Positions 9,923 to 53,947 of a DNA stretch of 64,000 nucleotides are shown in pieces. A program made the position numbers and the translations under genes. The stretch covers positions 6,087,904 to 6,151,903 of the forward strand of contig OZ004597.1 in NCBI GenBank assembly GCA_963924555.1. Reading direction: 5' to 3'. Position 1 is the stretch's first letter. Every line of letters starts with the position of its first letter. Source of the stretch: Crambe crambe (taxonomy: Eukaryota; Porifera; Demospongiae; Poecilosclerida; Crambeidae). The notes under the pieces were generated by a model. That model was not told the origin of the DNA. It ran no database searches and saw only the letters and a list, made by a program, of their open reading frames with translations.

Positions 9923-12811
9923 ATGGAGTTGATCAGCCAGTTACTTCTACTAGCTGCTTCGCTCACCATTATCAAGGCCCAATGCAGCTCCCCCCGGTTT
10001 CAGTGAGTAGAATTATTGATACTGAATAGACGACTAGCTAGCTAGTACCATCCTTCTTCATGTGCACTGTTCAAGTGTGTTCGAGCCTATTATAATAATT
10101 GTTCACTGAACTGCAGGATAACCAATCCAGTGTGCACCTCCATTGCTGATACAGCATGCAGTCAATTCTACTCCCACGCTACTTTCTCTGGCAGTGAACC
10201 AAATGCCCTGAATGCTACTCGGAGTACACTTGAAAGGTATCGGCTTGCATTTGACCGATTGGATTGCTCCCAATATGCTGCAATCTACTTCTGTTTGTCA
10301 CTGATGCCTCAATGTGACCCTACTGCTCAAGGAGGAGTCCATTACCTCAGGCCCTGTGCCTCTCTCTGCCAGCTAATCATCAACAGCTGTAACAACTCCA
10401 TCAACTCCCTTGGTATAGGACAAAGTCTAGATGTCAACTGCCTTCTATCTTCTTGTTCAACAAGGTAATGAATTCTCAATACCTTTAATGTGCATGATAA
10501 CTGCATGCTTTCTCTGGGATCTAGCAGGAGAAAACCTTAATAGGTAATGTCTTCTGGAAGTATACTTGTATATGTTAGCTGAAATTGATCTAGTTTCATT
10601 AGATCTATGGGGACAAGAATATTTCTAGGATAAGCTATATCCCCATTTTTGTGTGAACTACCCCGTGCCCTAGTTGGCTTCAAGACAGTCTTGTCAGCTG
10701 TTTCCCTATCAATCATAGAGCTTCCCTTGACCTCACTGTGAGTATTAACTTCCTTGATAGGTAGCTAGATGGTTTTCCTTAGGGTGGCCAGGTAATAATG
10801 AGAATTAAGTAAGTGGTAACAGGGCTAGATCCAGGGGTGGGTTGTAACTCCACCCCCCTCTTGTTCCAGGACTCCAGGTCCTCTTTAAAAACTCCCACCA
10901 CCATATGTCTTCCCCTGTGTGCCCAGTCCTGCAACCCCACCCATCTACTTTGGCTTTAGTGCTAAATTGTAACTTGTTGGACCAAAAGTAAAAGTAAAGG
11001 ACTATTCCTCAAAATTAAGGGTGGCCCTGACCAGCCTGGCCACCCCTGTTCCTACCCAGTGAACTTCTCTGAGGCTACCTTAAAGTAATTACATCAAAGA
11101 ACACTTTTATGACTTAAACTTTGACACAACAAAGCAACAAATCACAGAAAAAAAATTTCAGCTTAATAGGTTGTCACTAGCTGCCAAGTTTTCATATTTC
11201 CAAGTGACATCACAGCCTACCTGACCATATGTACCTCAGCTCCCTGTTACATTTTGTTTAGCCACATCAAAGGAAGTAGCATAGCCAGCTTGTTACATTT
11301 TATTGTTCAAAGGAAGTAGCATAGCCAGCATGCAAAATATACCTCAGCTGCTTGTTACTGTTCAAAGGAAGTAGCATAGTTGCCTTGAAACCTGATCTGG
11401 TATTTTATAGGTGACCTATGTCGTGGAGTCATTCTTTGATCTTTGTGAAGTCAGCACAGAATTGTTGCACTGCCCTTTGAACCCTCATGTTGTTAACTTT
11501 CAACTGGTACTGGTATGATAAGCATATAGAATCCCTGTAACAGTGTTTACTTTTGATTTTAACTACAGGTTTCCTTCTGACAACTGCATTGATGCTGAGA
11601 ATGCTATCGTGCGGGCATCTATAGCAACACAGCCAACCAGTGGCTCCACAGAACCATCGCCGCTGCCACCAACCACAACTGATTCTTCCCCCATCACTGA
11701 TGACCCTAGAAACTCCAGCACCATTTATACCTGCCCACTCCCTAACAACACCTTTTTCACAGGTTCTTCCAAGTCATTTGCTCTTGGCTGGGTTAGTTTC
11801 TGGTCAGTTCTCTGCTTTCTCTCCACCACCCTGACTATCCTAACTTTCCTGTTAGACACCTCTCGATTCCAATACCCATGGCGTCCTGTGATCTTCCTAG
11901 CTCTCGTCTTCAACCTCCATTCCTTCGTCTACTTCTTCTCAGCAGCTCTCGGGCGGAGGATTGTAACATGCCCCAATGGTCGATTTGTGGAGAGTGGAGA
12001 TGCTTGGTCCTGGGCTCACACTCCTTGCATCTTGATTTTCATCTTCCACTACTATACAATGATGGCTGCCTTCATCTGGTGGGTCATTCTCACCATCTGC
12101 TGGTTCCTTGTGTCTGCTCTGCAATGGAGTCATGAAGCTGTCACCAAATTAGCTCTTTTCTTCCACGCCTCAGCATGGATCTTACCTCTCTTGATGACTA
12201 TCAGTCTCATGGCAGCCCGTGTGATTGGCGCTGATGAACTCACTGCCACTTGCTTTGTGGTGAGTAATGGGACCACGTCTTCCTTCCTAGCATTGCTGAT
12301 AGGTGTCATTGTGCCGCTGGTGATCCTCTTATGTGTGGGTGTAACATTTCTCATCCTTGGTTTTGTTGGTATTCTACGAATCAGATCCTTCATGCGTAGA
12401 GGAGGCAAGCAGCAGGAACAACAGATTTTGGAGAAACTGATGATACGAATAGGCATCTTTGTAGCTGTGTATATCGTCCCAGCGTCCGTTCTGGTTGGTT
12501 GTTTCATATACGAGTTGGCCTCTCGTGCTAGCTGGGTGCCCTTGAGTGAGGATTGTCCACGTTGTCCTCGTCCTAACAGTGCTGTCTTCATGGTCAGAGT
12601 CTTCATGTTCCTCTTGATTGGAATTCTGACTGGAATTTGGATCTGGTCTCGTAAGACCATCCAATCCTGGCAAAAGCTGCCAGAGAAGTGTGCAACCTGC
12701 TGCTCTTATCATCCAGACGAGAAAGAAGAAGCCAGACCATCTGCAGAAAATGTCATTTCCATTGGCATGCCCAGCTATTCCTACCCCGACTCTGGACTGG
12801 ACTCCACCTAA
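9923..12811 (+). CDS. Frizzled family Wnt receptor
   Basis: Three exons: 9923-10002, 10117-10464, 11569-12811, giving 556 residues. Residues 1-20 are a signal peptide; residues 21-150 form a cysteine-rich Wnt-binding domain with about twelve cysteines; then a Ser/Thr/Pro-rich linker with N-glycosylation sites, and seven hydrophobic helices over roughly 195-505. The cytoplasmic tail begins with KTIQSW (about residues 504-509), an exact fit to the KTxxxW Dishevelled-binding motif of Frizzleds, after the conserved GIWIWSRKT. The seven-helix domain lies in one exon. The tail of about 50 residues ends DSGLDST, without an obvious PDZ ligand. The protein would sit in the plasma membrane and signal through Dishevelled and beta-catenin. 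Which sponge Frizzled paralogue it is was not decided. Confidence 0.93.
11249..11385. repeat. Three-copy tandem repeat in Frizzled intron 2
   Basis: Three imperfect copies built around TGTTCAAAGGAAGTAGCATA and CTTGTTACATTTT. The rest of this 1.1 kb intron shows no other feature. Confidence 0.8.
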
Positions 12812-16200: not shown

Positions 16201-19200
16201 CTCATACCCAGGTCACCATGTATCACTTACCCTCATACCCAGGCCACCATGTATCCCTCTAGCCCAGGCCACCATGTAGCCACTAGAAGGGATACATGGT
16301 GATCTGGGTACGAGAAAGAGTTATTTATTCTTGGTATGAGGCTAGAGGGGATACATATATAAGATAGAAACCTTTAAAGTGAGGATATGTTGGAAGTTGT
16401 CGGCATCCCAGCACTTGATGGAAGCATCTTTACTGCCTGAGAAGAGGAGGTGAGTGTCAGGCACGAAGGAAACACATGTGATACTGTCCTCATGAGCAAA
16501 TATTGACTTGTGACAGTCACCAAAATCAAGACCCCAGATACGAAGATTCTTATCTGCTGAACAGCTCACCAGCAGAGTACTATCCTGAATGATGTAGTCA
16601 TGGTGATAAAACCAAGGTGCACATGGGGGAAGGTGGGTGTGGTATATGACATGCAATATAAGGGGAGTGGGGAGGTGTGGTGTATGACATGCAATATAAG
16701 GGGAGTGGGGAGGTGTGGTGTATGACATGCAATATAAGGGGAGTGGGGAGGTGTGGTGTATGACATGCAATATAAGTGGAGTGGGGAGGTGTGGTGTATG
16801 ACATGCAATATAAGGGGAGTGGGGAGGTGTGGTGTATGACATGCACTGTAAGGGGAACGGGAGGTGTGGTGTATGACATGCAATATAAGTGGAGTGGGGA
16901 GGTGTGGTGTATGACATGCAATATAAGGGGAGTGGGGAGGTGTGGTGTATGACATGCACTGTAAGGGGAACGGGAGGTGTGGTGTATGACATGCACTGTA
17001 AGGGGAACGGGAGGTGTGCTATACGTAAATACGCACAGAGGAGATGTCCATGGAGAGAACTGGTAGCTTGTGTCCATACAGAGATAGGAAAAACTGCACA
17101 AAAGAAATTAATCCCTCAATCATTGCTCAGACCGGCCAGGCCTTGTACTTGACTCACCTTGAGTGTGTCAGCAAAGAAGACCTTGATGGTAGAGTCAAGT
17201 AGAGCTACAGCCAAAAGACGTCCATTGGGACTATAACACACCCCTAAAACATCCTCTGACAGTTTGAGTGTACGAGTCAGTGAGAGGCTCAGTCTGTCAA
17301 TAATAAAAATAATCAGTAGTTTAGTCAGGGTAATCACCCCTGATCTCCCACCCCAACCCACCCCTGATCTCCCCCACCCCAAACCACCCCTGATCTCCCC
17401 CACCCCAAATCACCCCTGATCTCCCCCACCCACCTCTTTCTGTAACTGTTAGAATTACCATGTGGTTACCATGCACTCCTGGGTTACCATGGGGGTTACC
17501 ATGGGGGTTACCATGCAGGTACTTACACTTACTTTTTTCCTAAGACATCATCTCCTTTGGCCCTGTCTTGGGACACCAGTTCAAACTCCCAGAATTTCAC
17601 TGTATGGTCAGCACTTCCCGTCACCACACCCCTTTTATCAGGAAAGAGGGAAAGTCCCCAGATGGCTCCTTGATGAGCAGGGATTTCCTCCAGCAAAGAA
17701 CTTGATGATATATCAAAGAGCTGCAGGTGCCCAGACTGTACAAACATGCACAAAAAGAAGAATATAGCATTGTAGAACATTCCCACTTCATGGTGTCATA
17801 AGTAGGTTCCCCATTAGCTTCATCCCATGAAAATTGACTCCAGCACTGGGAGACATGCATGTAGAACGTTCCATGAAGTGGGAGAGATGTATGTGGAATG
17901 TTCCATGAAGTGGGAGACATGCATGCAGAACGTACTAGTACTATGAAGTGGGAGACATGCATGTAGAATGTGCATGTAGAACGTACTAGTACCATGAAGT
18001 GGGAGACATGCATGCAGAACATACTAGTACTATGAAGTGGGAGACATGCATGTAGAATCTGCATGTAGAATGTACTAGTACCATGAAGTGGGAGACATGC
18101 ATGTAGAATGTACTAGTACCATAAAGTGGGAGACATGCATGTAGAACGTTCCATGAAGTGGGAGACATGCATGTAGAACATGCATGTAGAACATACAAAT
18201 ACCATGAAGTGGGAGAATGCATGTAGTGTGTATAAGTTTTGTTTCTCCTTACCTTAGTTCCAATGATGATGTACCTATCTCCTGGCACAAATGTTGAGGA
18301 GAGTGCATATCTGGATGCCATGGTGCAGATGCACTGAAGTGTCGACCTGCAGTTCAGGGAAAGGATGACTCACAGAAGGCATTAGGAATGGACTCCCCAC
18401 CTATTCCACACTTTGACTGCTTTGGAAGAGCCAGAAAGAATTCTTGAATTGTCCAAGCTAAAGCACACAGTTCTAAGGAAGATCGAGATTAACAATGTTA
18501 GTCAGAGTGGGTGGAGGAGACGAGTGAGTGGAGGATGTGTGGGTGGTGGGTGGATGCGTGGGTGGAGATATGTAGGTGGTGAGGACATCTCTTGGGATCA
18601 CTTGCATCATGCAGACCAATAAGTATCCCAGATCCCATGAGCTTTATTGCTTTTGTCATGTTAAATGGTCTAGATATGTCATTGGTTCAGTCAGTTCATT
18701 GGTTGCTTAGCTATCAAGTATCTTGTGACAATCTTTGGGTGAACAATGCTCACTCTACAGTGCTGGTTACAATTGTCCATACTTGAAGTGACACAACTTC
18801 CACAATAGACAGCTGGATCACTGCACTCCATGTGGTAGATAATCAGACCACAAAGGCCATTGTGCCTCTGACTCCACCTCACCAGCAAACATAGGGGTGG
18901 GTTGATCATGTGAGCTCACAAAAAATGAGCAGTTCTATAAAAGTGAAGTCTATGAAAATGGCTGCTGCATCACTCTTACTTCTCTTGCTACTTGTAGCTG
19001 CTGCAGTGTCAGGTATGGTGTCAGGTATGGTGTCACTTATGGTGTCACTGATAGCACTCATAGCTACAACAGTGAATGAATGTAGTCTGTCAGCTAACTA
19101 GCTAAGCGAGAGAGGCAAGATATTCATCATCATAACAAATTGGGCTATACCAGAGGAGCATCATATCTCATCATAGAGGAGTATGTGCTGACTGTTCCAA

Positions 19201-22200
19201 TACTTAGTCCTCAAAATAAACAGCCTGACACAGGACATTTTCCGGCCATTTTCCCCACATGTCTGGTCAATTTGTGCCGAGAAGCTGTTCAAATTAAGGG
19301 GGTGGGGCAAATATTAGTCCTCCTACTGGTCAGTGATATTAAATGTAGTTGACTTTACATAATAATATGGCCCCTAATGTGAGCTCAAGTGTGTTACAAT
19401 TCTTCCCTGGGGGTGCACTATGTGTAAACCCTCTGCTCTGGGTAATGAGCATCATTTTCATAAACTAAACATGGCTGAACAGTGCATAGGAAATAACAAC
19501 CAGTGGAGTGATATGTATTTAGTAGCCATGCAAATCTCCATCCAAAGTGAAGTGTACCATACCATGGTCAATAGTTAATGGTCTCCCATTATCATTATGA
19601 TAATCATTGGACTTGATCATAACCTCCATTCCATGGTTGTGCTCCAGGCAGAAACAGCAGTAAGGAACATCCTCCCAGCAAGAACAGCAGTGAGGAGAAT
19701 GCTCCAGGCAAGCACACAATTGAAGGGAGCAAGAACGGCAGTGAGGAGAATGCTCCAGGTGAGAACGTCAGTGAGGAGAATGCTCCAGGTGAAAACGTCA
19801 GTGAGGAGAATGCTCCAGGAAAGAACGTCAGTGAGGAGAGTGCTCCAGGCAAGAACAGCAGTGAGAATACTCTAGGCAAGCACACAATTGAAGGGAGCAA
19901 GAACGGCAGTGAGGAGAATGCTCCAGGCAAGCACACAATTGAAGGGAGAGCTCCAGGAAAGAATGGCAGCGAGGGGAGTGCTCCAGGCAAGAACAGCAGT
20001 GAGGGGAGTGCTCCTGGCAAGAACACGAGTGAGGAAGACTTTCAAGGCAAAAAAGTCAACGAGAGTGCTCCAGGCAAGAATGGTAGTGAGAAGGACTTGC
20101 AAGGCAAGAATGGCCATGATGAGGATGGAATTCCAGGCAAGACTGACAGTATACCAATGGAGGCAAGGTATGGCATGAAGACTGGGGTTAATGTGACACA
20201 GGATAGGAGTGAAGATAAGACCAAGCAAGACATGTCCAAGGAAGATGACACCAAGGAAGACAAAACGAAGAAAGAAGAGATCAAGGAAGATGAGACCAAG
20301 GAAGATAAGATGAAGGAAGACGAGACCAAGAAGACCGAGGAAGATGAGACCAAAGTGGATAAAACCAAGGAAGATCAGATGAAGGAAGATGAGACCAAGG
20401 AAGATGCGACCAAGCTAAAGGAAGATAAGATGAAGGAAGATGAGATCAAGGAAGATGAGACCAAAGAAGATAAGATGAAGGAAGATGAGACCAAAAAAAA
20501 AGAGACCAAGGAAGATGCAACCAAGGAAGAGAAGCTAAAGGAAGATAAGATCAAGGAAGATAAGATGAAGGAAGATGAGACAAAGGAAGATAAGATGAAG
20601 GAAGATAAGCTAAAGGAAGATAAGCTGAAGGAAGATAAGATGAAGGAAGATGAGACTAAGGAAGGTGAGACCAAGGAAGATGAGACCAAAAAAGATGAGA
20701 CAAAGGAAGATATACCCAAGGAAGATGAAACCAAGGAAGAAGAAGATAAGACCAAGGAAGATATACCCAAGGAAGACGATACTAAGGAAGACGAGACCAA
20801 GGAAGACGAGACCAAGGAAGACAAGACCAAAAAAGATGAGACCAAAAAAGATGAGACCAAGGAAGATGAGACCAAGGAAGACAAGACCAAAAAGGAAGAT
20901 GAGACCAAGGAAGATAAGATGAAGGAAGATGAAGCAAAGGAAGATGAGACCAAAAAAGATGAGACCAAGGAAGATGAGATTGAGGAAGACATACCCAAGG
21001 AAGACGATACCAAGGAAGATGAGATCAAGGAATACAAGACCAAGGAAGACATACCCAAGAAAGATGAGATAAAGGAAGAAGATGAGATAAAGGAAGACAA
21101 GACCAAGAAAGATGAGACCAAGGAAGATGAGACCAAGGAAGATAAGATGAAGGAAGATGAAGTAAAGGAAGATGAGACCAAAAAAGATGAGACCAAGGAA
21201 GATGAGATCGAGGAAGACATACCCAAGGAAGACGATACCAAGGAAGATGAGATCAAGGAGTACAAGACCAAGGAAGACATACCCAAGAAAGATGAGATAA
21301 AGGAAGACAAGACCAAGGTAAACATACTCAAGGAAGATGAGACCAAGGAAGATAAGATGAAGGAAGATGAAGCAAAGGAAGATGAGACCAAGGAAGGTGA
21401 GACCAAGGAAGATGAGACCAAAAAAGATGAGACCAAGGAAGATGAGACTAAGGAAGACAAGACCAAGGAAGACGATACCAAGGAAGATGAGACCAAGGAA
21501 GACACACCCAAGGAAGACAATACCAAGGAAGATGAGACCAAGGAAGGCATACCCAAGGAAGGCATACCCAAGGAAGATGAGACCAAGGAAGACATACCCA
21601 AGGAAGATGATACCAAGGAAGACCATACCAAGGAAGATGAGACCAAGGAAGACATACCCAAGGAAGATGATACCAAGGAAGATGAGACCAAGGAATACAA
21701 GACCAAGGAAGACGTACCCAAGGAAGATAAGATTAAGGAAGATGAGACCAAGGAAGACAAGGAAGACCATACCAAGGAAGATGAGACCAAGGAAGACATA
21801 CCCAAGGAAGATGAGACCAAGGAATACAAGACCAAGGAAGACGTACCCAAGGAAGATAAGATTAAGGAAGATGAGACCAAGGAAGACAAGACCAAGGAAG
21901 ATGAGACCAAGGAAGATGAGACCAAGGAATATGAGACCAAGGAAGATGAGACCAAGGAAGAGGAAGATGAAACCAAGGAAGAGGAAGACAAGACCAAGGA
22001 AGACATACCCAAGGAAGATGAAGATAAGACCAAAGAATTCGAAGATGAGGAACAGGGTGATGGAGAGAGAGGTGAAGATGCAAAGTGGAATCAGTATATT
22101 ATGTGGGCTCTTTTCCCTATGTACGTGCTGTCCATACTAACTGTGTGTCTCTATGGAATCTTCAAAAATTTTAAAAGGTCAGTGTGTGTCAGACTGTCTA

Positions 22201-25200
22201 GTGTTGAATACACAAGACCCTTGCAATTCTCTTGAAATACGAATATGGCTTAAAACTTCCCACCCCTCTAGTACAAGCAGTAAATATGCACGCAACCAAG
22301 AAAGAATAGAGGAAGAAGGGCAACAAAAAGGTGAATCTAAAGTTATAACTTGTAACAGTGTAGAACACACTAGAGTACCTTATAATCACAGAGTTGGTGT
22401 CCTCTCTCGTGCCAGAAGGAAATCCACTACCTTACATGGGTGAGTCCCTGACATTATCACTTGGTGCATAATAATTGTGAAGGGCTGGATTACCATCGTG
22501 GCATATCCATATCACTCACTTGTGTTTTTATCTACTTATGACAGGAAGTCGCCTGCGGAAATACTGGTTCACCAATGAGAACCATGACATCATCATCACC
22601 ATAGTGAGTACAGTCATATCATTATTATGCGATATCTAACTTGTACACTGCTCACTCAGACACCAGTGTCCAAGAAATTAGGAAAAAAGAGTGAAGTTTC
22701 TTCACAGCTAGCAAAGCTGCAGTCCAAAGCTAAAGGAGGTTATTTGCAGACAAACATTTCAGTTGAATTCATTGAATCACACGTGAAGGTGACCCAGCCA
22801 CTCCATCAACAAGGGTCTCTCAGAGATGCCATCCACCAAGTCAACGAGTACTGGTCAGGAAAGGACGACCTCCCTTGCACAAAGGACTGGGCTCTTAAAT
22901 ACCGTCACAAGGGCGAAGGTCTGCCGCTAGACAAAGTGGTCCTCTTTGGCAGAAGAATACTGAAGGTGTGTTTTGACTTCACAAATGCATGCATATACAA
23001 ACACACATACACACACTATGTAAGTCCACATTTTGCATAGGCAACTACACACTGCATTTTCCACAGGCACACACAAACACACTGCATTTACACAGACTGC
23101 ATTTTGCACAGGCAATTGAATACCTGCACAAGAATGGATTGAAGCAAATAGGCCATGTGCAATCTGGAAATATCTTCATAGAAGGTGACACGTGTCTCTT
23201 GGGAGGCTATGAAAATGCCTTATTAGGGTACAGGTCACGACTCCATCAAGTGTGTGAGAACCATTTATCCAGTATCGACACCATCATGTTTGGTGAGCAC
23301 ATCACCATAGCAATAGCTAACAATAAGTCACTCAGCTACATACATTAGAGAACTGCATGATGGCAGATGTTAAGGAAGCCTGCATGAACTGAATATGAGG
23401 GGGGCACAACTGGATGAGTGCCTTCAGCACTACATGGATATGCACACACCCACCTAGCACCATCAGAGTAGTACCCACCTAGCACCATCAGAGTAGTACC
23501 CACCTAAGGTCAGTGCTCACAATGACAGTCAGTCACAGGACATTTTCCAGTCAATTTCTTCATTTTTCCAGTCATCTTCTGCCTTTGTCGGACTAATTTT
23601 TCTATTATAGCTATACTCTTAAAATTGCTATTAGATAATCATGTCCAGACAATACTAGAGTGTTACTGTGAGCCCTGAGTCCTAGCACCATCAGAGTACA
23701 TAACTACTCAGTCACTCTGTGGGGGATGATTTGGTTTTGCATAACAAAGATGAGCAGCTTCATTTCAGGTCACCTAATGTACGAGATGAGTGTGGGGAAG
23801 GAACTTGCTGGACTTGAGCCCACTAACACTGAATATGAAAGTGTTGTAGACAAAGGAACAAAAAATATCATCCGAAAAATCTTCTCTCGAGAAAAAGGAC
23901 GCTTCAAGATGACAGCAGAAAAGGTATGGTATAAAGAAGGCAGTGTACCATAATCCCATTCTGATCCAATGCAGCTGCTCAAGGAACAATACTTCAAACA
24001 GAAGATGGCTCAATGACTATTTGGTCAGGAGAAAACTATTCACAATCCTGTGTAATGTTTTTTTTATTGTTTTTGGTTTATTGTTGTTGTTGTTGTTGTT
24101 GTTTTTGCTAAATTTAGCTGTAAATTATATGATGACACACGACATACCTGACATCAGTTCTGTGGCCAGGGGTGGCCACAATATAGAGTTGGCATGCCGA
24201 CCCATCCACCACACTAAACACCTCCAGGCTGTTATTCTGCATCGTCAGCAATACCTAAATAATGTCCAAGAAAAGCACCCACCTCAAACTAGTTACGTAT
24301 GAACAATCTGTAGCCTTAATCAATTACCAACAACTCTCCATTCTTCCCATTCAGTAAGTCCACTGACCTGCAATAATAATAGAATAATTACAGGGGCAGG
24401 CGCAAAATATACAAACCATGATCCAGGGCTCTCTCTAACTATGCATAATATATACGCACCTGTGTTTACCACCACCCTTAATAGAGCACACCAGCTTCAA
24501 CTTGTCTTTAACTCCAAGAACCACCTCCTATAAGACACAAAATACTAAACTTTGATTTAGCAGTTGGACAATTAAGTGGATCTCTGCACAACTGCCTAGC
24601 AACTGTGTAGTACTCACCTCTTGATTAGCTTCAGGATTCTTCTTGCTGGCTTTTCTTCTGCGTTTCTTCAAAAGTTGTTCTAGTTCTGTTGCTGTACGCA
24701 CTTGATACAATTCAACTCCAGAGGACAGGCACTATGATGAAATAATCATAAATTTGGTCCTGAAGGAGACCCAGTTGTACTCACAAGACAGGCAAGGTGA
24801 CGTCCTGAAGGGTCCATTTTTATCAGAGAAAAACGTTCCTGAGAACACATCTTGATGCAGCCCATCTCCGTAGCAACCACAGACATCTACACAATAATAT
24901 TATAATTAATACTAGTGTTTGTGAAATGGACTACTTTGGCCTTGTTTTTGCTAGCTGACTACCTAATGGCCTTGTTTTTGCCAGCTGACTACCTTGTTCT
25001 TGCTAGCTGACTACAGGAGATGCTCGTAATCCACTCATGATTATAAGCAATTGTGAATGTCCTGTTCAAACTGAACAATACAGGGCTATGTAGGTTTCTG
25101 GGCTCTAAAAAATAAAAAATGGGGTTTTATCAACTAGGCCATGCACCAACATTGATGAAGACACTGTATTTCTACTGATAGAGCAGAGTCATACATACAT

Positions 25201-32138: not shown

Positions 32139-33539
32139 GTCTACGCCCACGTAACATTTCTTACACGTACGTACGTACGTACGTACATGTGCCGCGACGA
32201 TCACTTACCAACAATCCTGCAAGCCGGCCGGCCCCATCGACAAAAGGGTGTGGCTATGTATAAGTGGGCGTAGCTTAGCTGCATAATAAAGCTTGGCTCA
32301 TGTAGCATTTGCATGCATGCATGCATGCAGTGAATTTAACAGAGGAAATATCTTTATAGCTTTTCTAAATCGTGTGGCTTGCTTATTGTGATAAACTCTT
32401 GTGGAGGCTACCAATGTAGCTAATGGGTTGTCTATGTGATCTTAAAAAAAACCAATGTATAACAGAAACCCACTTCAGTTCCCCCTAACACAGCAGTTCT
32501 ATAAGTTCATGCAGTTAACACACTTTAAATATCAACTGGCTATTGAAGCTTTGCAGGAACTAATAGTATTTCAATCTCTTCAGAGGAGTTTCTTTAGAGC
32601 ACCAGTGTCACAGTGGATTTGGTACCCCCCAATATTTTGTACCCCCATGCAAAATATCCTAGTGGATTTTGCACCCCTACTAGCTACCTAGCTAGCTAGC
32701 AATGCACACTACGTTCACAGCTTGCTTATTGCTCTCAGTTCTGTGATGAAGTCTTTTTACATAGCACCCCTGGGACAAAGATGACATACAGAAGAAAGAT
32801 TTAAACTAAAGTGTAGCTAATAGAAGAATAAACTTATGATAACTGCTAGTAGATAAAGCTATACAGTCATTTAATTTTTTGTGAGCTCTCACCACATAGG
32901 CAGCAGGAGCTAGATTGGTGGTATGTCGGCCAGCCTGATGTAAGCAGCTAAATAGTGATTGGGTATAAGGTGGGGTTCCTACTTGGCCCGACATGTCACA
33001 CCAAGAATCAGGCATCTCTTGGTGGAAGTAGTACTGAATGTGAACCGTAGAGGAAGGAGGGGAGAAAAAATGTCATATAACCATGCATGCATGCATGCAG
33101 CACGCAGGATATCCTGCAGGTAGCCCCACCTATCAATTTAACCACTGATATTCTCTTGTTGATCTCTAGTTTACTTCTTTCATGATACAACTTGTTATCT
33201 GAAATTCTATTAATAGCTAAGTAATTTTGTTCACCTATTCAAATAATAGCTGTATGCAGATTTTTGGTTCTGTGTAATACAATCCCACTGAAAAATACTT
33301 AACTTTGGGTGGCTAGTAATATTATACTCTTTTGTGACCACTTATTTACACTTTTATTGACCATGTGGTTGCTGTGTCAGACCACCCTTATTAAATTAAC
33401 TACCCATACAAGAATTTATTTACCAGATCCGTTCCAGTCACAGGAATTGCAGCATAACATAATTGAGCAGAATTTGCCAAGGCCTATCAGATTTATACAA
33501 TAGCAAAAAGCGCAATAGGTGAATGGGAGACTACCAAGG
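32139..33539. other. Intergenic stretch without a gene
   Basis: Contains a (GTAC)n run at 32166-32187 and (GCAT)n palindromic runs near 32310 and 33085. No coding signal, TIR or RNA gene found. Confidence 0.7.
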
Positions 33540-34919
33540 ATGTCAATCAGCATGTTCACAGGTGGGACAAGAGTCAAAATTTGCTCTAAATTGCTCATCG
33601 TTATAGTTGGTTTCTACCTAATAATACGTGTATTCGAAGTAGTCACAAGGCATAAAGACATCGATGTCACAAGGCATAAAGACTCTTTTCCAAAGCCAAA
33701 GTGTGAAAAAGGTGAGCAGATGCAGAAGACTAGTGTGGTATTACCCAGGAGCAAAGATAATCCTTATGAACATAACCAGGCTTGGAAGATCCTCACAAAA
33801 GCTCTGAAAAATTACACACAGTTTCACAAAAAGAAGTTAGAACAGCTGAAGTTTTCAAATGCTGCTAATGTCAGGACACTTACCTGGGATTGTTTAAGAT
33901 TTACATGCTCTGGAGTAGGTGACCAGCTTTTCAGGATTCAGTTCTTTTTACTTGTCGCAATGATGTCAGATCGTGTCCTCATCATCAACTGGAGTTGGAA
34001 TTTTAAAAGGGTCATTGGCTACCTCATTCCCAATGAAATTGAGTGGGATTACAGAAATGCAGGTATTTGTACTGGAAAGTGTTCTCAGAATGCATACTTT
34101 ACCAACAATATACTGGGATGGACGAAAGAAGAAGTGGAGAAATTTAGTGAAGCGGTTTTTAGCTCTGAAAAAGATATCGCTGTAGCTGGTGCTCTATTTG
34201 CTACTACAATGTTCATTGGTAATATCGATTACGGAGACCTCATAACAAAAGGCATGGAAAAGCTTGGAGTATTTCAGCTGTTACAAGAAGATCGTAAAAA
34301 CGCTGTACACATTGGCCATCAACTATTCTGGTACAATATACTTGACTCTCTGGGTATCACAAGTATTTTGGAGTTGCCTCAAATGGGGAGTGGTCAAGCA
34401 CATGTCACATATCCATGGTGGTATATGAGCCATCTTCTGATGCGATACCTATTCAAATTCCCTGCAAGCTTACTTGATCAAGTGGATGATCTTCAAAAAA
34501 AACTGGGACTTCATCAAAAGAAATATCTTGCAGTGCATTTACGCACTGGGTTCTTAGGCACACCAGATGTAGAACCATGGTTTAACAGATACAAGTTTCA
34601 AGGATGGAAGTTGTTCTGGAATGAGGAAGACTGGGATTGTGTGTTGGAGCACAGCCTGAAGTTAGGAGATGAACTTGTTGGCAGAGGTTCACTCATTTAT
34701 GTCAGCACTGATACACATTTAGTGAAGAGAAGGATAAAAGAAAAATTTGCCGATAAGAAACGGTTTATATTTACCAATTTGACACCAACACATTCAAAAG
34801 CACACTTGGTAAATTGTGATAGAGATCCAACTATGTGGTTAGAGTTCTTCTTACTTCCCTCCCTCCGCTTCCCTCCCCTTCCCTCTGTCTTCTATGCAAT
34901 AACAACAGGTTCAGTGTAG
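33540..34919 (+). CDS. Type II membrane glycosyltransferase-like ORF, truncated and chimeric at the C-terminus
   Basis: Intronless frame of 459 residues from the first in-frame ATG. Residues 1-13 are cytoplasmic and 14-34 a signal-anchor helix, the Golgi type II layout. A luminal domain follows with several conserved-looking blocks: GVGDQLFRIQFFLL, YPWWYMSHLL, and KKYLAVHLRTGF at about residues 327-338. HLRTG resembles the HxRxG/D motif of GDP-fucose-binding transferases (FUT and O-FucT clan), so a fucosyltransferase-like role is the best guess. After DPTMWLEFFLL (about residue 440) the frame runs into pyrimidine-rich sequence that is not this gene: it is a copy of the receptor-kinase intron found near 45.0 kb. 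The expected last strand and helix of the fold are thus missing. It may be a retrocopy or a dead partial gene. Confidence 0.6.
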   Translation: MSISMFTGGTRVKICSKLLIVIVGFYLIIRVFEVVTRHKDIDVTRHKDSFPKPKCEKGEQMQKTSVVLPRSKDNPYEHNQAWKILTKALKNYTQFHKKKLEQLKFSNAANVRTLTWDCLRFTCSGVGDQLFRIQFFLLVAMMSDRVLIINWSWNFKRVIGYLIPNEIEWDYRNAGICTGKCSQNAYFTNNILGWTKEEVEKFSEAVFSSEKDIAVAGALFATTMFIGNIDYGDLITKGMEKLGVFQLLQEDRKNAVHIGHQLFWYNILDSLGITSILELPQMGSGQAHVTYPWWYMSHLLMRYLFKFPASLLDQVDDLQKKLGLHQKKYLAVHLRTGFLGTPDVEPWFNRYKFQGWKLFWNEEDWDCVLEHSLKLGDELVGRGSLIYVSTDTHLVKRRIKEKFADKKRFIFTNLTPTHSKAHLVNCDRDPTMWLEFFLLPSLRFPPLPSVFYAITTGSV

Positions 34920-36522: not shown

Positions 36523-39500
36523 TCATAATATACAGGTATCACTGAAATCATCTTCACTTTCAGATTGTGAGTCAGCACCAAACACCGATTGCATGATATT
36601 GTCAATGTCATCATCATCTTGATACATGTACTCCACGTGATCATCAATATCGTCATCGGATTTGTCACTGGCTTCAATTAAGAAATCATCATCACTTTCT
36701 TCCGGGCGTTGATCCATCTCTAAGTGCTGGAGTTCGTTATCTTGGTCATTTGAAGCAGCATTTGCAGGAGTGTTAGAGCAGCCTATGCACTGGCATCCTG
36801 GCCTACATGTCGTTTCGTTCTTCTTGCACTTACAACGCCTTGAATTACATCCTGTCTTACATTTGCATCCATGGAAAACATATTCCAGTGTATGGTGAAC
36901 TTTGGCCACGTTCTCAGGTGTGTCCCAAACTATCTCCAACATGTTTCCATTACCTCGCTGCCATCCATAATCAGTAAGTGCTATTATAATAACACAAAAT
37001 ATTAACCTTACTTAGATTAGTCACTATACATACCTGGAAGTTCAATGTCATTGTCAGTAGAGGAATGCCACAATCCTAATACCCATAGACTCCTGTACCA
37101 ATGAAGCTTCAGAGCCTCAGTTGATGGTAAATTATGGGCCTCACGATCTGCTCTAAGCCAAACTCCCTTCCTTATCTTTTCCAACCACTGAGCATGAGTG
37201 TCTAGGTCATTTGACCCACTTGGTATAGAATGGTATAATGATACTGGTGTTTTGTGTTCAAAAGCTGAGGAATGCTTCTTAAAATATGCACAGCCTACTA
37301 GTCTTAGAAAAGCATACAGCGAAGGATCATCATGGTTCAGAGTGATCATTCCGAGAGACCCAGGAAGTTGTGATCCCTCGGAAATGAAACTGGCATATTG
37401 AAAGAATGTTGAAAGAAATGTACATTTCCCAATTCCAACAAAGAAAGAAACATAATCACACCCAGTACACACGTAGAGGGTTTGGATAACCTGGGGTCGA
37501 TGGAGAAGTGGGATTGCACTCAGGTCAGGGTCCCTATCTATAGCAAACAATAGAGCATCCATATCAAGAAGGGCAGGGTTTTCAACCAAGCTTTTGCTAA
37601 TTTGGATCACTATGTGTTTTCCAGGCATCGTTTTAGCAATTGGCAAGCCGACATGGTACACATCTGTGTCAGGACTATAAATGAGTACTTTGGAACCAGT
37701 ACAGTGCACACACCGTAACCAAAGTTGCATATCAGCTTCATCCATTGTTGTGTTTAATGATGGTCTTTCCATAGTCCCTTCCAACTGATTACAACTATAT
37801 GTTGTACCTTTAATGTTTGTGAAAAACTCTTGTTCAGGCTCTTTCATGTAACTGGGTACAATCTCCAATAATTCTCTTCCAAGGTAGGAAGTTAGATCTG
37901 CCTTGCATGTTCTGCATGCTAAAATTGTTCTCCACCTTTTGGGGATTGTAGTATCCGAGTGAAAAACCACACACTTGTGATCTGCCAATTCAGCAGTAAC
38001 TGCTGCATCTCGACGACCCTGTTCAATTTCTTTAGGTGTCTCAGGCAAACTACCTTGGTTATCAAAAACTACGTGTACTTCCCTTGAACCATGGTTGAAG
38101 TGTGATTTTATATACCTCACACATAACATTTTGGCATATTCTTTCATTTTTTGAATTGTAGGGAAAGGAGTCATCTGTATCATGAACATTCCTTCAAGAA
38201 TGACGGAAGTTGGAGTCCATTGAAGAGAAGTAAGCAATATGTCTTTGTACCTGTTTGTCAGATATTTCGTGGTTAAATGTTTAGCAGATTTGTAAGGGAG
38301 CCCATCTTTACCTACAAGAGCCCGGGGAACACTTGAGATAGATTGAAATGGGTTTTGACCGGGGGTTGGTGTTGCCCATGCTAGATGGCGCTTTAAAAAG
38401 CGTTGTGTGATTTTTCTTTCTTTTTCTACACTTTTAATTCTGTTTCTTTGAGTCTGTGTGATACTAAATGTCAACAATCGCTTTTTCCGGACCGGTGCTG
38501 TTGTGCTTGCTTCTTTCAATATTCTGTACTTCACATGTGCTTCAAATGCCTCTTGACCAATTTTTCTAAAATGGAGAAGGTCATTTGACTGGTCTGGGGT
38601 AGCTTGTTTGTGGTCTATGAGAGTGCAGAGAGTGTGTTCCTGATCACTATCAACCATCCCATGTGAGCTCAGAGCATGTACCATAGCTTTGGTATTCTCT
38701 TCGACAATCTTGTCTCTGGTGGTAGGGGTGTAGCAGGTTGTCCTGTTTTGTTTTGGAAGAATTTGGGATTTCAAATTATTAATGCATGCAGATCGAAAAG
38801 GAAGGTAGTTTGATAAGTGGGTCATCTTTTCCCTGTTTGGTCGAACAACTGCCAGCTTACAATCCTTATTAATTTTCATCTCATGGCACTCATCTAAGGC
38901 TACTCCGCACCAATCAGAAGGTGACAGGCGAACGGCAAATGCCCCCCTTTTCAATTGTAATTTTAAGCAGTCTGGAAGTCTGCATAAATCAAACAAGTGC
39001 CGAGGGAGTAGCCTTTGATATGTGCCATGATCAAATGCAGTGTAGAGTGGAACCATATGCTTTAGGCTAGCTACACGCATCTCCCAGTTTCTGTATCTGA
39101 TAGATATATACAGAGATAGATAGGGTAAGCAATCTTCAAATAAAAAGCCATGCCAAAATTTGTATGTATCATGTTTTTTTACAAGTGTTTCAAGGTGCTT
39201 CAAAAATTTGCTATAAAGTGTAGGTAGTTTATTGGCAACGAAAGAACTTGCCATTAATCGGAACTCTTCCAGATCCACTTCATTTTTTATTTGTTTGAAC
39301 TTGTCTAGTAGGTTGCAAAGACTGGCTTGAAATTCATCAATACTCTCGCCATAGGACTGTAAGAAGTACTCATATACTGATTCAAAACACTCTAAAAGAA
39401 ATAGGTGTGTTCTTCTAAAATTAGATGACGTTTTTAGAGACTTAAGAGTCTCTGACCTGAAACCGGCTTTTTTAGCCAAGTTAACCAACCCTGCATCATA

Positions 39501-40862
39501 GTATGGTTTCATTAACACTTTCTGATAGTTGTATAGTGTATGCCAGTCTCCAGGGATAGGAATGAGCCAATTAACATTATCCCCATATTCAATGCGAATT
39601 GCCTGAAGTACATCATATATTTTGGCATCACCAACAACTAATACCCACTTTTGATCAAGTTCAGTAATGAATGTTTTGTGTATTTGTCCTATGATGTGTA
39701 GCAAAGTGGCTTTGGAATCAGCCTTTTCACTAAGAACATCAACATACACTACATTTGAACATTCTGCTTCAGTGGATTGCTTTTGCAGGCAGTGGATAAA
39801 TGATGGTATTGCTGGGAGAGGGGTTGTACTGTCATCCCCAAGCTTATTGAAGTGTTTCAATAGCATAGCAAAGTGAATATCTCGTTTTAGTTTGTCCAAA
39901 GTAGCACTCTCAGTTCCAGTAATTAAGAAATCATTGATGTTGGGAGTTGTGTCACTCTGCTGGTACAATAGATTATCTATACCAATTCCATTTTCTAGAT
40001 CAGATTCCATAACATGGGTATGAGGTGAACTTTGCTCAGTTAAAGTACGCTTTCTCCTTTTGTGCCTGTGTACCACTACTGGTGAACTTTCAGTTTGCTG
40101 ACTAGCAGAATTGCTTACCCTTTCTTCAGCACTAAGCATGCCTGTTATTGGCAGGGGCTGTGTACATTGGGTGGATGTACCATGCCAACTCCTTGTATCA
40201 TCCATGCAAGAAACTATACCATGAGGTAACTGAATGTCAATGTTATCAATAGATATAACTGATAGCATGCCTGGAACAAGGTGGATTTTTATGCCATCTC
40301 TGAGTCTCTTTTGGACCACCAAGGTTGACAGTCGATTGCATGTATCTAAACTTGCCACGGCTCCAATCCTGTTCATTATCTTGACTAATTCCAAACTTCC
40401 CTTGTGACATAAGATTGTCTCGGTTAATAATACATGCATAGGTGCACTACATATGCTGTTAGTGTTAAAGAGTAGAACACATAATGCATAAAATTGTCGG
40501 ATGGTTCGTATGTCCATGCCTTCTTCAGTGGTAATGTGCTTCTTTCTTCGTTCATTGACTGTGCAGGTTAACTGCTTGAGAAACTGAATAAGTATGGGGT
40601 CGGTATTTTTTAATATATTTGAAATACTCATTTTGGTATAATTTTCTGGCTCCCTGAATTCTTGTACAAGTTTTCTAGATTGTTCATGTAATTTGGTATT
40701 TAAATACAGTGCTACTGTTTCAATGTCCTGTTTTGTTGGTACGTTGTGTTCAACAGTATTAACTATTGTAGTACTGTCAGGCTCATGTTTATTTGCTGTC
40801 TTCTGTTGTCCAAGAGCATGAGATAAAGCACTTGAGAGGTCACAATTTTTATGATAAATCAT
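36523..40862 (-). CDS. Academ-like transposase: XPG-like nuclease plus CXC domain
   Basis: Main exon 40862-37034, second exon 36980-36523, joined in phase (donor CCAG|GTATGT, acceptor TAATAG), 1428 residues if the Met at 40862 is used. Middle part holds VLVVGDAKIYDVL and GDWHTLYNYQKVLMKPYYDAG, blocks common to large transposon proteins of sponges and cnidarians. Residues about 1058-1065 (SPDTDVY) and about 1133-1147 (TGCDYVSFFVGIGK) fit the acidic strand and the GSDY...GIG loop of XPG/FEN1 nucleases. The second exon supplies a CXC (tesmin/TSO1-like) cluster, HGCKCKTGCNSRRCKCKK then CRPGCQCIGC, and a very acidic tail. Without the splice the frame would end at 37017 and lose the CXC domain. Expected to bind and cut the element ends. 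The N-terminus may extend into the next ORF upstream. Confidence 0.7.
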
Positions 40863-40995
40863 TGTGTTCCAATTCTTTTGTGTTTACACTCCATCACTAT
40901 ATCTTCCCCCAGGTAATGATGAAGTCTAGATATGAACCAGAGTGTGGATGGAATATCACTAGTGGTTAAGTTCAGGTAAGGATAGAGGGATGTTT

Positions 40996-41826
40996 TCAAA
41001 GCAGCTGATTCAAAGAAACTCCTGTAAATTGTGTTGGTAAAAGCATGGCTTCATTTCTGGTAAGTTTTTTGGCAATGTTTTGTGCAGTGTAGCAAAAGAT
41101 TAAATCATAGTATTCTTCTCTGCTTATATTAGCCTTTGAATTAATGGTATCTATTTGAGAGGAAATGGTGGCCATTACTGTTTCAAGGTTAATTCCTGCT
41201 GTACTATGAATTTCCTGTATAATGGACTTAGTGTGGTGAAAGTGGGTTATGATGCTATTGAAGAACTGGTAGCATCGATTACATATTATACTAGATTCCA
41301 CTAGGGTGCACGATTCACTGCTCATATTTTTAAGATAAGAATTAATGATGTCAGGTGAAGGGCAGTGTCGGAAGTATTCCTCTCCCCGTCTAGGCTTACT
41401 ATTACATGAATGGCATGGATGAGGAGCATGCAGAGCAGTGTACACTGTCATGTAGTGTTTTTGGCATAGTGGAACACTATCATCTCCTCCCTTTGAGATT
41501 TTAGTACCTAAAATTTTCTCCATGTCAGCGAGGGTTGCCATATTGGTGTGCCTATGGACCTCTAATATACAGTTTGTCACTCCGCAATATGCATTAACAT
41601 GAGTCTTAGGTTTCCATCTCGGATGATAATTTTCATTCCCGACATTTCTAGATGCTTGCTTGTAGCACGCATGGCAGATGCAAGCAGTGGTGCTCAAAGT
41701 TTGATCCTCAATTTCACTGATAAAATTATATACTTTTTGGTCCATCGTTAGTGGGTGGGTATACCTATTGCTCTCTCTTTGACATAGAGAGCAAGCACTG
41801 CATTTGCCCTTGTGTGTATTGGCCAT
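40996..41826 (-). CDS. Transposon-encoded Cys/His-rich protein (possible N-terminal part of transposase)
   Basis: 276 residues from an ATG near the right end of the transposon. Cysteine pairs at CSACSLC, CICHAC, CGVTNC, CHSC and CNRC with intervening histidines suggest two or three zinc-binding modules. It lies 133 bases upstream of the large transposase frame on the same strand. In related elements the zinc-binding N-terminus and the nuclease are one polypeptide, so the two may be exons of one gene, but I could not find a convincing splice pair. Function beyond the element is unlikely. Confidence 0.65.
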   Translation of the reverse strand: MANTHKGKCSACSLCQRESNRYTHPLTMDQKVYNFISEIEDQTLSTTACICHACYKQASRNVGNENYHPRWKPKTHVNAYCGVTNCILEVHRHTNMATLADMEKILGTKISKGGDDSVPLCQKHYMTVYTALHAPHPCHSCNSKPRRGEEYFRHCPSPDIINSYLKNMSSESCTLVESSIICNRCYQFFNSIITHFHHTKSIIQEIHSTAGINLETVMATISSQIDTINSKANISREEYYDLIFCYTAQNIAKKLTRNEAMLLPTQFTGVSLNQLL

Positions 41827-42449
41827 TATTTATCAAATTACTATTTTTTCTTATCTTTGAGTTATAGGTGTTGAGGAGAGGTGGAAGGATGAACGAACAC
41901 CTATTTTTGTTCTCCTATTGAATAAAAGATTGATCCTTGTTATGGCAGTGGATTTATTTTGTTGTACTCACTTGCAGCGAACTTGTGTAGCTAGCACCTT
42001 CACTGCCTATGGTAATTTAATGTTCAACTTTGTACCATCAATTATGCACTGTATAATAACACAACAGTTATTTTTTAAATGTGTATTAATGCTGTAGCTA
42101 TTGCTCTATCTTCATTACCTGTCTTGTGCCGTAATTGTTTGCTTACAGTAAATGGCCCACAGATGAAGTTGGTGACTTCAAAAGTGGTAGTAGTTGTTGA
42201 ATGAGCTCTAGCTAACTGGTACTTCAATTATTTCCTACTAAATTTCATGGATGGTTGCAGGGAGGGTTGACCACTTAACATTCCAGGTAACAAGCTACAG
42301 CTGCAAACCAACAACGAGTGACAGCTGCATAAAGCTGCCCGCGCCATTGCTAATTTTTGCTAATTTTAATCTCGCGGTGATGTCATAAAAAAATAAATTT
42401 GTATTACAGATATAGCACTTCCGGTACGTTGGCGAGCGCGATTAGACTG

Positions 42450-43110: not shown

Positions 43111-53947
<10,837 letters not shown>

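What the first reader, a model, noticed from the sequence alone, without database searches (positions are those of the whole stretch)
18473..24147. A complete membrane pseudokinase gene lies inside a WDR3 intron on the opposite strand
WDR3 exons 10 and 11 flank the interval in phase, and every exon of the second gene lies between them. The inner gene fuses a leader peptide, a glycosylation-rich stretch, about 600 residues of charged KED repeats, a TM helix and a PXK/SLOB-like pseudokinase with both HRD and DFG destroyed. PXK itself has a PX domain and is cytosolic; a receptor-like version with this ectodomain is not known to me.
Basis: partly seen in the sequence, partly recalled or inferred. 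Interest (0 to 1): 0.8.

Follow-up and report, generated by a model that had tools for sequence, protein, structure and literature searches.

The report
Membrane PXK-like pseudokinase nested in WDR3
A complete-looking gene inside an intron of another gene appears to encode a cell-surface protein whose inner end is a dead protein kinase of a kind described as cytoplasmic, and it is a stray relative of a cluster of such genes, several of them receptor-like, elsewhere in the same genome.

Summary
An 8-exon gene (window 18925-24016, +, 1139 aa) lies wholly inside one WDR3 intron (24147-18473, -); WDR3 reads through that junction. The protein has a leader, 14 N-glycosylation sequons, 603 KED residues (224-826, net charge -127), no ectodomain cysteine, a TM helix and a PXK/SLOB-like pseudokinase with GHVQSGN and LGGYEN in place of HRD and DFG. 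Only the gene's frame is open through the KED array, and its changes favour synonymous sites.

New here: it has relatives. I modelled 39 related pseudokinase domains on contig C8, 38 of them at 8.69-9.06 Mb of 9.17. Several are receptor-like: leader, Ig domain or glycosylated repeat stalk, TM, then pseudokinase. A PX-linked PXK-type locus on C9 keeps the DFG aspartate. A published survey says SLOB orthologues appear cytoplasmic (PMC1420674, passage).

Best reading: a receptor with a PXK-type adaptor built in cis; the KED stalk is an extreme ectodomain with no close match in this genome. Ligand, expression, catalysis and species are untested. New variant of a known kind.

The parts
18473..24147 (-). 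WDR3 intron that contains the whole second gene
   Evidence: sequence: donor CAG|GTATGT at 24148/24147, acceptor AG at 18474-18473; WDR3 protein continuous through the junction
18925..19012 (+). exon 1: leader peptide (residues 1-30), phase-1 donor
   Evidence: a second donor 12 bases downstream keeps the frame
19648..22177 (+). exon 2: glycosylation-rich repeats, KED repeats, TM helix
   Evidence: inside an 870-aa open frame; splice sites and phase
19648..20228 (+). N-glycosylation-rich region with 30-base and longer repeat units (PGKNxSEENA)
   Evidence: elsewhere only one weak, stop-ridden match
20229..22037 (+). KED stretch, residues 224-826; 15-base unit GAAGATGAGACCAAG, about 116 copies over 20211-21961
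22101..22177 (+). TM helix and start of the cytosolic side ([25 protein letters not shown])
22272..22330 (+). exon 3: charged juxtamembrane exon
   Evidence: similar exon in C8 paralogues
22545..22603 (+). exon 4: start of the pseudokinase (SRLRKYWF)
22660..22965 (+). exon 5: N-lobe part with GSLRD
23112..23292 (+). exon 6: former catalytic loop GHVQSGN and former DFG place LGGYEN
23769..23923 (+). exon 7: C-lobe (FGHLMYEM spans the exon 6/7 junction)
23975..24016 (+). exon 8: last helix and stop
   Evidence: intron before it shared by 17 of 20 models that span it

Best explanation
The gene encodes a type I single-pass surface protein: a stray, KED-stalked member of a receptor-like family of PXK/SLOB-type pseudokinases in this animal. 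Shown by sequence: nesting, frame, exon-level homology to 39 modelled pseudokinase domains on contig C8, a TM next to the pseudokinase in several relatives, Ig or glycosylated-repeat ectodomains in some of them, both catalytic motifs altered in nearly all, and purifying selection on the pseudokinase of the three Ig-type genes. Inferred: the 815-residue, cysteine-free, heavily glycosylated and negatively charged outside part is an extended brush or spacer rather than a folded ligand pocket. The pseudokinase acts mainly as a protein-binding platform, most likely steering internalisation or assembly of the receptor, as PXK does in trans for EGFR and the B-cell receptor. The fusion would put that adaptor in cis onto the receptor.
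For: Gene model with eight compatible exons; KED frame tests; genome search giving a C8 cluster plus this gene; 39 spliced models, 38 of 39 with the G[H/N]xx-GN loop and 38 of 39 with LG[G/D]Y at the DFG place, 34 of 39 free of stops in the better of two models; profile of 13 domains hits kinases in the PDB, best WNK3 E 4.5e-6 for the whole sequence (best single stretch 0.0012); Pfam I-set over cut-off for one C8 exon, just under for two more; Ig fold by AlphaFold2 and Foldseek; leader-Ig-TM junctions in phase for two genes; shared introns; dN/dS 0.21-0.22 for three pairs of Ig-type genes, medians 0.48 and 0.50 for the two tandem kinds. Role of PXK in EGFR and B-cell receptor internalisation: PMC4288052, abstract and passages.
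Against: No RNA or protein evidence. A Met at the head of the TM (MWALFP) could start a short form without the KED part. Splicing of the C8 genes is modelled by a home-made aligner and several models lack an N-lobe exon. Of ten C8 genes scanned, only six show a clear TM by my reading, with two more. The Ig exon is in three genes only. PXK's effect on EGFR is reported as PX-domain dependent and these genes have no PX match, so the trafficking analogy is weak there. PMC1420674 (passage) says SLOB family members of other species may have catalytic activity in spite of divergent motifs, so 'dead' is not proved. The window gene is a long branch.
Confidence: 0.6

Rival explanations
1. The real product is a short membrane-anchored pseudokinase that starts at the Met at the TM helix; the KED array and leader are not translated with it.
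For: A Met sits at the head of the TM; some C8 copies show, by eye, only a hydrophobic N-terminus without a recognised ectodomain.
Against: KED and glycosylation repeats are open throughout only in the frame that runs into the TM, with excess synonymous change, and a leader exon joins in phase.
Confidence: 0.15
2. Decaying duplicate: a copy of a C8-type gene moved into the WDR3 intron and is open by chance, not expressed.
For: Long branch in the tree; 5 of 39 C8 models carry stops and the C1 copy looks broken.
Against: No stop or frameshift over 1139 codons, shared splice sites, intact family motifs.
Confidence: 0.12
3. Two genes: a KED membrane or secreted protein and a separate cytosolic PXK-like pseudokinase, fused only in the model.
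For: No transcript; no close KED-type relative elsewhere in the genome.
Against: The TM lies in the KED exon and is followed after a 94-base intron by a juxtamembrane exon like that of the paralogues; several paralogues carry a TM at that place.
Confidence: 0.1

Closest known systems
PXK (MONaKA), PX-domain pseudokinase of animals
   Same: The C9 locus of this genome, with a PX match 589 bases upstream on the same strand, shows the same kinase-like signatures GSLKD, GHIHAGN, ENSLMG, FGHMLYEM. Likeness to human PXK itself is recalled, not compared
   Different: PXK is reported as mainly cytoplasmic (PMC4288052 passage); here a leader, ectodomain and TM stand in place of the PX domain, and the aspartate kept at C9 (VDTEN) is glycine (LGGYEN)
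SLOB family (Drosophila SLOB; Dictyostelium SLOB2)
   Same: Divergent kinase-like family; a survey lists four Slob-type non-kinases, three of which it says carry an N-terminal PX (PMC2754085 passages; that those are PXK is recalled)
   Different: Survey text says SLOB orthologues appear cytoplasmic and SLOB2 has a predicted N-terminal anchor (PMC1420674 passage); no Ig, stalk or leader is mentioned in the passages seen
Receptor pseudokinases of other kinase families (ErbB3, PTK7, ROR; recalled)
   Same: Ectodomain + TM + catalytically impaired kinase domain used as a binding platform
   Different: Those are of the tyrosine-kinase group; here the domain is PXK/SLOB type, and the KED stalk has no recognised folded domain
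Sponge TIR-Ig receptors (PMC12909245, PMC8242945 passages)
   Same: Ig ectodomain on an animal receptor, as in three C8 relatives
   Different: Cytosolic part is TIR, not a pseudokinase; relevant only if the species is a sponge, which was not tested

Membership tests
PXK/SLOB pseudokinase family | protein-kinase-like domain | tested here: met
   Profile of 13 domains against PDB sequences: kinases, best WNK3 E 4.5e-6, best single stretch 0.0012. Pfam kinase models match 7 and 5 of 13 members at E up to 1, best 9.3e-5; the window gene's own match is far below the cut-off (13.3 against 31.7 bits).
PXK/SLOB pseudokinase family | family signature shared with a PX-linked member | tested here: met
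   C9 locus with PX match upstream reads GSLKDAIYG, GHIHAGNVML, VDTENSLMG, SFGHMLYEM. No external PXK or SLOB sequence was compared
PXK/SLOB pseudokinase family | altered HRD and DFG | tested here: met
   GHVQSGN and LGGYEN in the window gene; 38 of 39 C8 models match the family pattern at each place
PXK proper | N-terminal PX domain | tested here: not met
   None of the 30 PF00787 matches reported for the genome lies at the window gene or in C8 8.69-9.07 Mb (exon-by-exon search, so a split PX domain could be missed)
PXK/SLOB as described | cytoplasmic protein | tested here: inconclusive
   Prediction says membrane: leader plus TM, TM in several relatives; no localisation experiment
Active receptor kinase | catalytic Asp in HRD and metal-binding Asp in DFG | tested here: not met
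   residual activity not testable here
Immunoglobulin-domain receptor (three C8 relatives only) | Ig domain in the ectodomain | tested here: met
   I-set 29.9 bits against a cut-off of 23.7 for one exon, 21.2 and 21.4 for two others; Ig-like fold, mean pLDDT 72 for the best of five models, 54-56 for the other four. The window gene has no Ig match in the pieces scanned
PXK function in receptor uptake | regulates internalisation | not testable with these tools
   needs cells

The most novel reading that the evidence does not exclude
The C8 cluster and its stray KED-stalked member are a lineage-specific class of variable, largely non-catalytic surface receptors: interchangeable ectodomains (Ig, glycosylated repeat stalks, polyanionic KED brush) on a built-in PXK-type pseudokinase, some with two pseudokinase domains in tandem, sited near a contig end and expanding like recognition receptors for microbes or self/non-self.
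Probability: 0.3. Interest if true: 0.85.

Novelty: new variant of a known kind. Interest (0 to 1): 0.62.

Why it matters
A pseudokinase family described as cytoplasmic appears here as the inner half of a group of predicted surface receptors. If confirmed it gives a natural test of what PXK/SLOB-type domains do (a motif-less kinase domain kept under purifying selection and hard-wired to an ectodomain), and adds a candidate class of variable receptors in an animal. The KED gene shows how far such an ectodomain can drift by repeat expansion. Nesting of a gene in an intron is by itself ordinary.

Tried and rejected
Uniqueness of the receptor layout: rejected, some C8 relatives share it. C8 copies as purely cytosolic: rejected for those with TM and leader, left open for the others. 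The hydrophobic exon upstream of copies 8912, 8922 and 8925 was not resolved. An Ig profile found three full Ig exons on C8 plus one weak fragment at 8959517 (iE 0.026); the genome search gave the same three, so Ig is not family-wide. PX on the C8 genes: no match. RNA families in 18400-24300: none at gathering thresholds. tRNA: none in the window (run with the bacterial code). The tree (37 rows: 35 C8 models, window, C9; models 8915259, 8951471 and 8917812 and fragment 9028496 left out) puts the window with 8931296 at 95/91 but warns of long branches meeting, so that place is unsure. Some C8 copies are near-identical (8912/8921; 8980611/9009368 identical in the tree), so the copy count may include recent or assembly duplicates. 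C1:1098065 is a broken tandem-type copy. Literature: searches listed no paper on membrane PXK/SLOB receptors, but several showed only part of what they found (20 of 2609, 10 of 650, 12 of 41, 12 of 22, 15 of 18), and the library is open-access only.
Full report
WHAT WAS CHECKED. The finding claims that a complete membrane pseudokinase gene lies inside a WDR3 intron on the opposite strand. On the minus strand the WDR3 exon ends at 24148 with ...GHRTDV plus a split codon; the next exon starts at 18472 and continues TVCFSLDN. The protein hand-joined over this point, with two further exons, best matches human WDR3, 7mq8 chain LQ, E 5e-64, and the best aligned stretch runs through the junction. So the 5675-base intron is real by homology. 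Exon numbers were not counted.

THE GENE MODEL. On the plus strand eight exons from 18925 to 24016 join with GT-AG introns and compatible phases into 1139 residues plus stop. A splice-aware aligner, given this tail as query, returned the same cytosolic exons, which validates the aligner rather than the model. The leader exon ends in phase 1 and has a second possible donor 12 bases on that keeps the frame. The order is leader (1-30), repeat region with 13 sequons starting at residues 32-174 and a 14th at 211, KED stretch (224-826; 175 E, 161 K, 113 D, 74 T; net charge -127), TM from 848, charged juxtamembrane exon, pseudokinase. The ectodomain has no cysteine.

IS THE KED STRETCH TRANSLATED? 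A 15-base repeat can be open in several frames by itself, so the open frame alone proves little. Four things favour translation. First, over the KED stretch the sense frame has 0 stops and the others 19, 78, 3, 1 and 11. Second, aligned to the 15-base consensus, 67, 54 and 103 substitutions fall on codon positions 1, 2 and 3, and the synonymous fraction is 0.339 against 0.199 expected. Two other frames also exceed expectation (0.286 against 0.217; antisense 0.42 against 0.335), so the signal is the strongest of the six but not overwhelming. Third, the register holds: 1693 of 1784 aligned bases are in the sense register. Fourth, none of 500 arrays with as many random substitutions stayed open in any plus frame, with a mean of 9.7 stops in the sense frame under a transition bias; this null is too harsh because real substitutions are copied along with units.

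RELATIVES IN THE SAME GENOME. The genome has 143 Mb in 119 contigs and is not named. The pseudokinase part matches a dense cluster on contig C8, 8.69-9.07 Mb of 9.17 Mb, plus copies at C8 8.00 Mb and C1. Of these 39, 38 have the G[H/N]xx-GN loop, 38 have LG[G/D]Y at the DFG place, and 34 are free of stops in the better of two models. At least two further matching places (8.004 and 9.066 Mb) were not modelled. Thirteen domains (12 of the 39 plus the window) were aligned: 22 invariant columns. Their profile finds solved kinases, best WNK3 at E 4.5e-6 for the whole sequence, 0.0012 for the best stretch. Single sequences are weak against Pfam kinase models.

RECEPTOR-LIKE LAYOUT OF THE FAMILY. Of ten C8 genes scanned for hydrophobic stretches upstream of the pseudokinase, six show by my reading a clear TM just before the juxtamembrane region (9039, 9036, 9033, 9045, 8710, 9058); in 9039, 9036 and 9045 TM and juxtamembrane region share one open frame, and in the others joining was not tested. 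Four do not show it clearly (8928, 8866, 8913, 9048). Two more were seen later: 8941 and 8931, the nearest tree neighbour of the window gene, with TM and juxtamembrane region in one frame. Three genes carry an Ig exon. One passes the Pfam I-set cut-off (29.9 against 23.7 bits), two fall just short (21.2 and 21.4), and a genome search finds just these three. AlphaFold2 on two of the three (the third straddles two loci) gives an all-strand model at mean pLDDT 72 in the best of five models and 54-56 in the rest; Foldseek matches it to Ig domains of receptor phosphatases, titin and Robo. For two genes, leader, Ig and TM exons can join in phase. Three other C8 places hold a repeat stalk TSEMVTATSESTNET with N-glycosylation sites, in open frames of 191, 134 and 55 residues. 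Nine adjacent pairs of two kinds of pseudokinase domain look like genes with two domains in a row, and a linker exon recurs between them.

THE PX-LINKED MEMBER. The genome search reported 30 PX matches. One, C9:6041229-6041375, lies 589 bases before a pseudokinase match on the same strand; the fetched 800 bases read GSLKDAIYG, GHIHAGNVML, CKLVDTENSLMG, SFGHMLYEM. It keeps an aspartate at the DFG place. A PX match also lies before a weaker match on C5 (E 0.009), not fetched. So a PXK-type locus exists beside the receptor-like family, and no PX match was reported at C8 8.69-9.07 Mb or at the window gene.

HISTORY AND SELECTION. Five introns of the window tail are shared in place and phase with 26 of 27, 34 of 37, 35 of 37, 17 of 20 and 9 of 16 models that span them, while 76 other introns in the 37 models used have no counterpart. 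The gene therefore arose by DNA duplication, not retroposition. Pairwise dN/dS is 0.21-0.22 for the three pairs of Ig-type genes (dS 1.0-1.3, so rough), median 0.48 for 54 of 55 pairs of one tandem kind (one pair with too little change was dropped) and 0.50 for 45 pairs of the other, one pair above 1. The domains are thus kept. Neither the glycosylation repeats nor the KED repeats have a close match elsewhere: one weak, stop-ridden match for the first and five weak low-complexity matches for the second.

HOW IT MOST LIKELY WORKS. Shown: anatomy, homology, altered catalytic motifs, conservation. Inferred: surface display, an extended polyanionic glycosylated stalk, a pseudokinase used as a platform. 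PXK is reported as mainly cytoplasmic and as helping EGFR and B-cell receptor internalisation, PX-dependent for EGFR (PMC4288052, abstract and passages seen). I propose that here the PXK-type adaptor is in cis, so that the receptor carries its own trafficking or assembly module and does not need PX-mediated membrane binding. That last step is a proposal. Against a wholly dead domain, the Dictyostelium kinome paper notes that SLOB family members of other species may be active in spite of divergent motifs (passage).

NOVELTY. [quoted passage not shown] PMC2754085 lists four Slob-type non-kinases, three of them with an N-terminal PX (passages). Eight literature searches (listings only, several partial) showed no receptor-like member. 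The library is open-access only, so this is weak evidence of absence. I file it as a new variant of a known kind.

Noticed in passing
G000 C8:8.69-9.07 Mb (loci L029-L048): Cluster of PXK-like pseudokinase domains near a contig end (38 modelled), nine adjacent pairs that look like two-domain genes; ectodomains vary (Ig, glycosylated repeat stalk, unresolved).
   Followed up: partly
L037 4177-4749, and C8:8984933 and 9014090 (-): Repeat stalk TSEMVTATSESTNET in open frames of 191, 134 and 55 residues in three relatives: the same kind of repeat-length variation as in the KED gene.
   Followed up: partly
G000 C9:6041229-6042603 and C5:220128-221072: PX matches followed by PXK-like matches on the same strand: likely PXK proper, possibly two loci.
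   Followed up: partly
window 16636-17018 and 17903-18226: Minisatellites (38/113-base and 89-base units) that by position lie in other WDR3 introns.
   Followed up: no
window 37017-40883 and 40996-41829 (-): Two long open frames (1288 and 277 aa) of unknown, perhaps transposon-derived, nature.
   Followed up: no
window 11522-12811 (+): 429-aa open frame that by eye looks like a seven-helix receptor; not tested.
   Followed up: no
window 33519-34919 (+): 466-aa open frame with one N-terminal hydrophobic stretch, glycosyltransferase-like by eye; not tested.
   Followed up: no
window 45495-45672: Perfect GA dinucleotide run of 89 units inside an open frame whose upstream part looks fibronectin-III-like by eye.
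   Followed up: no
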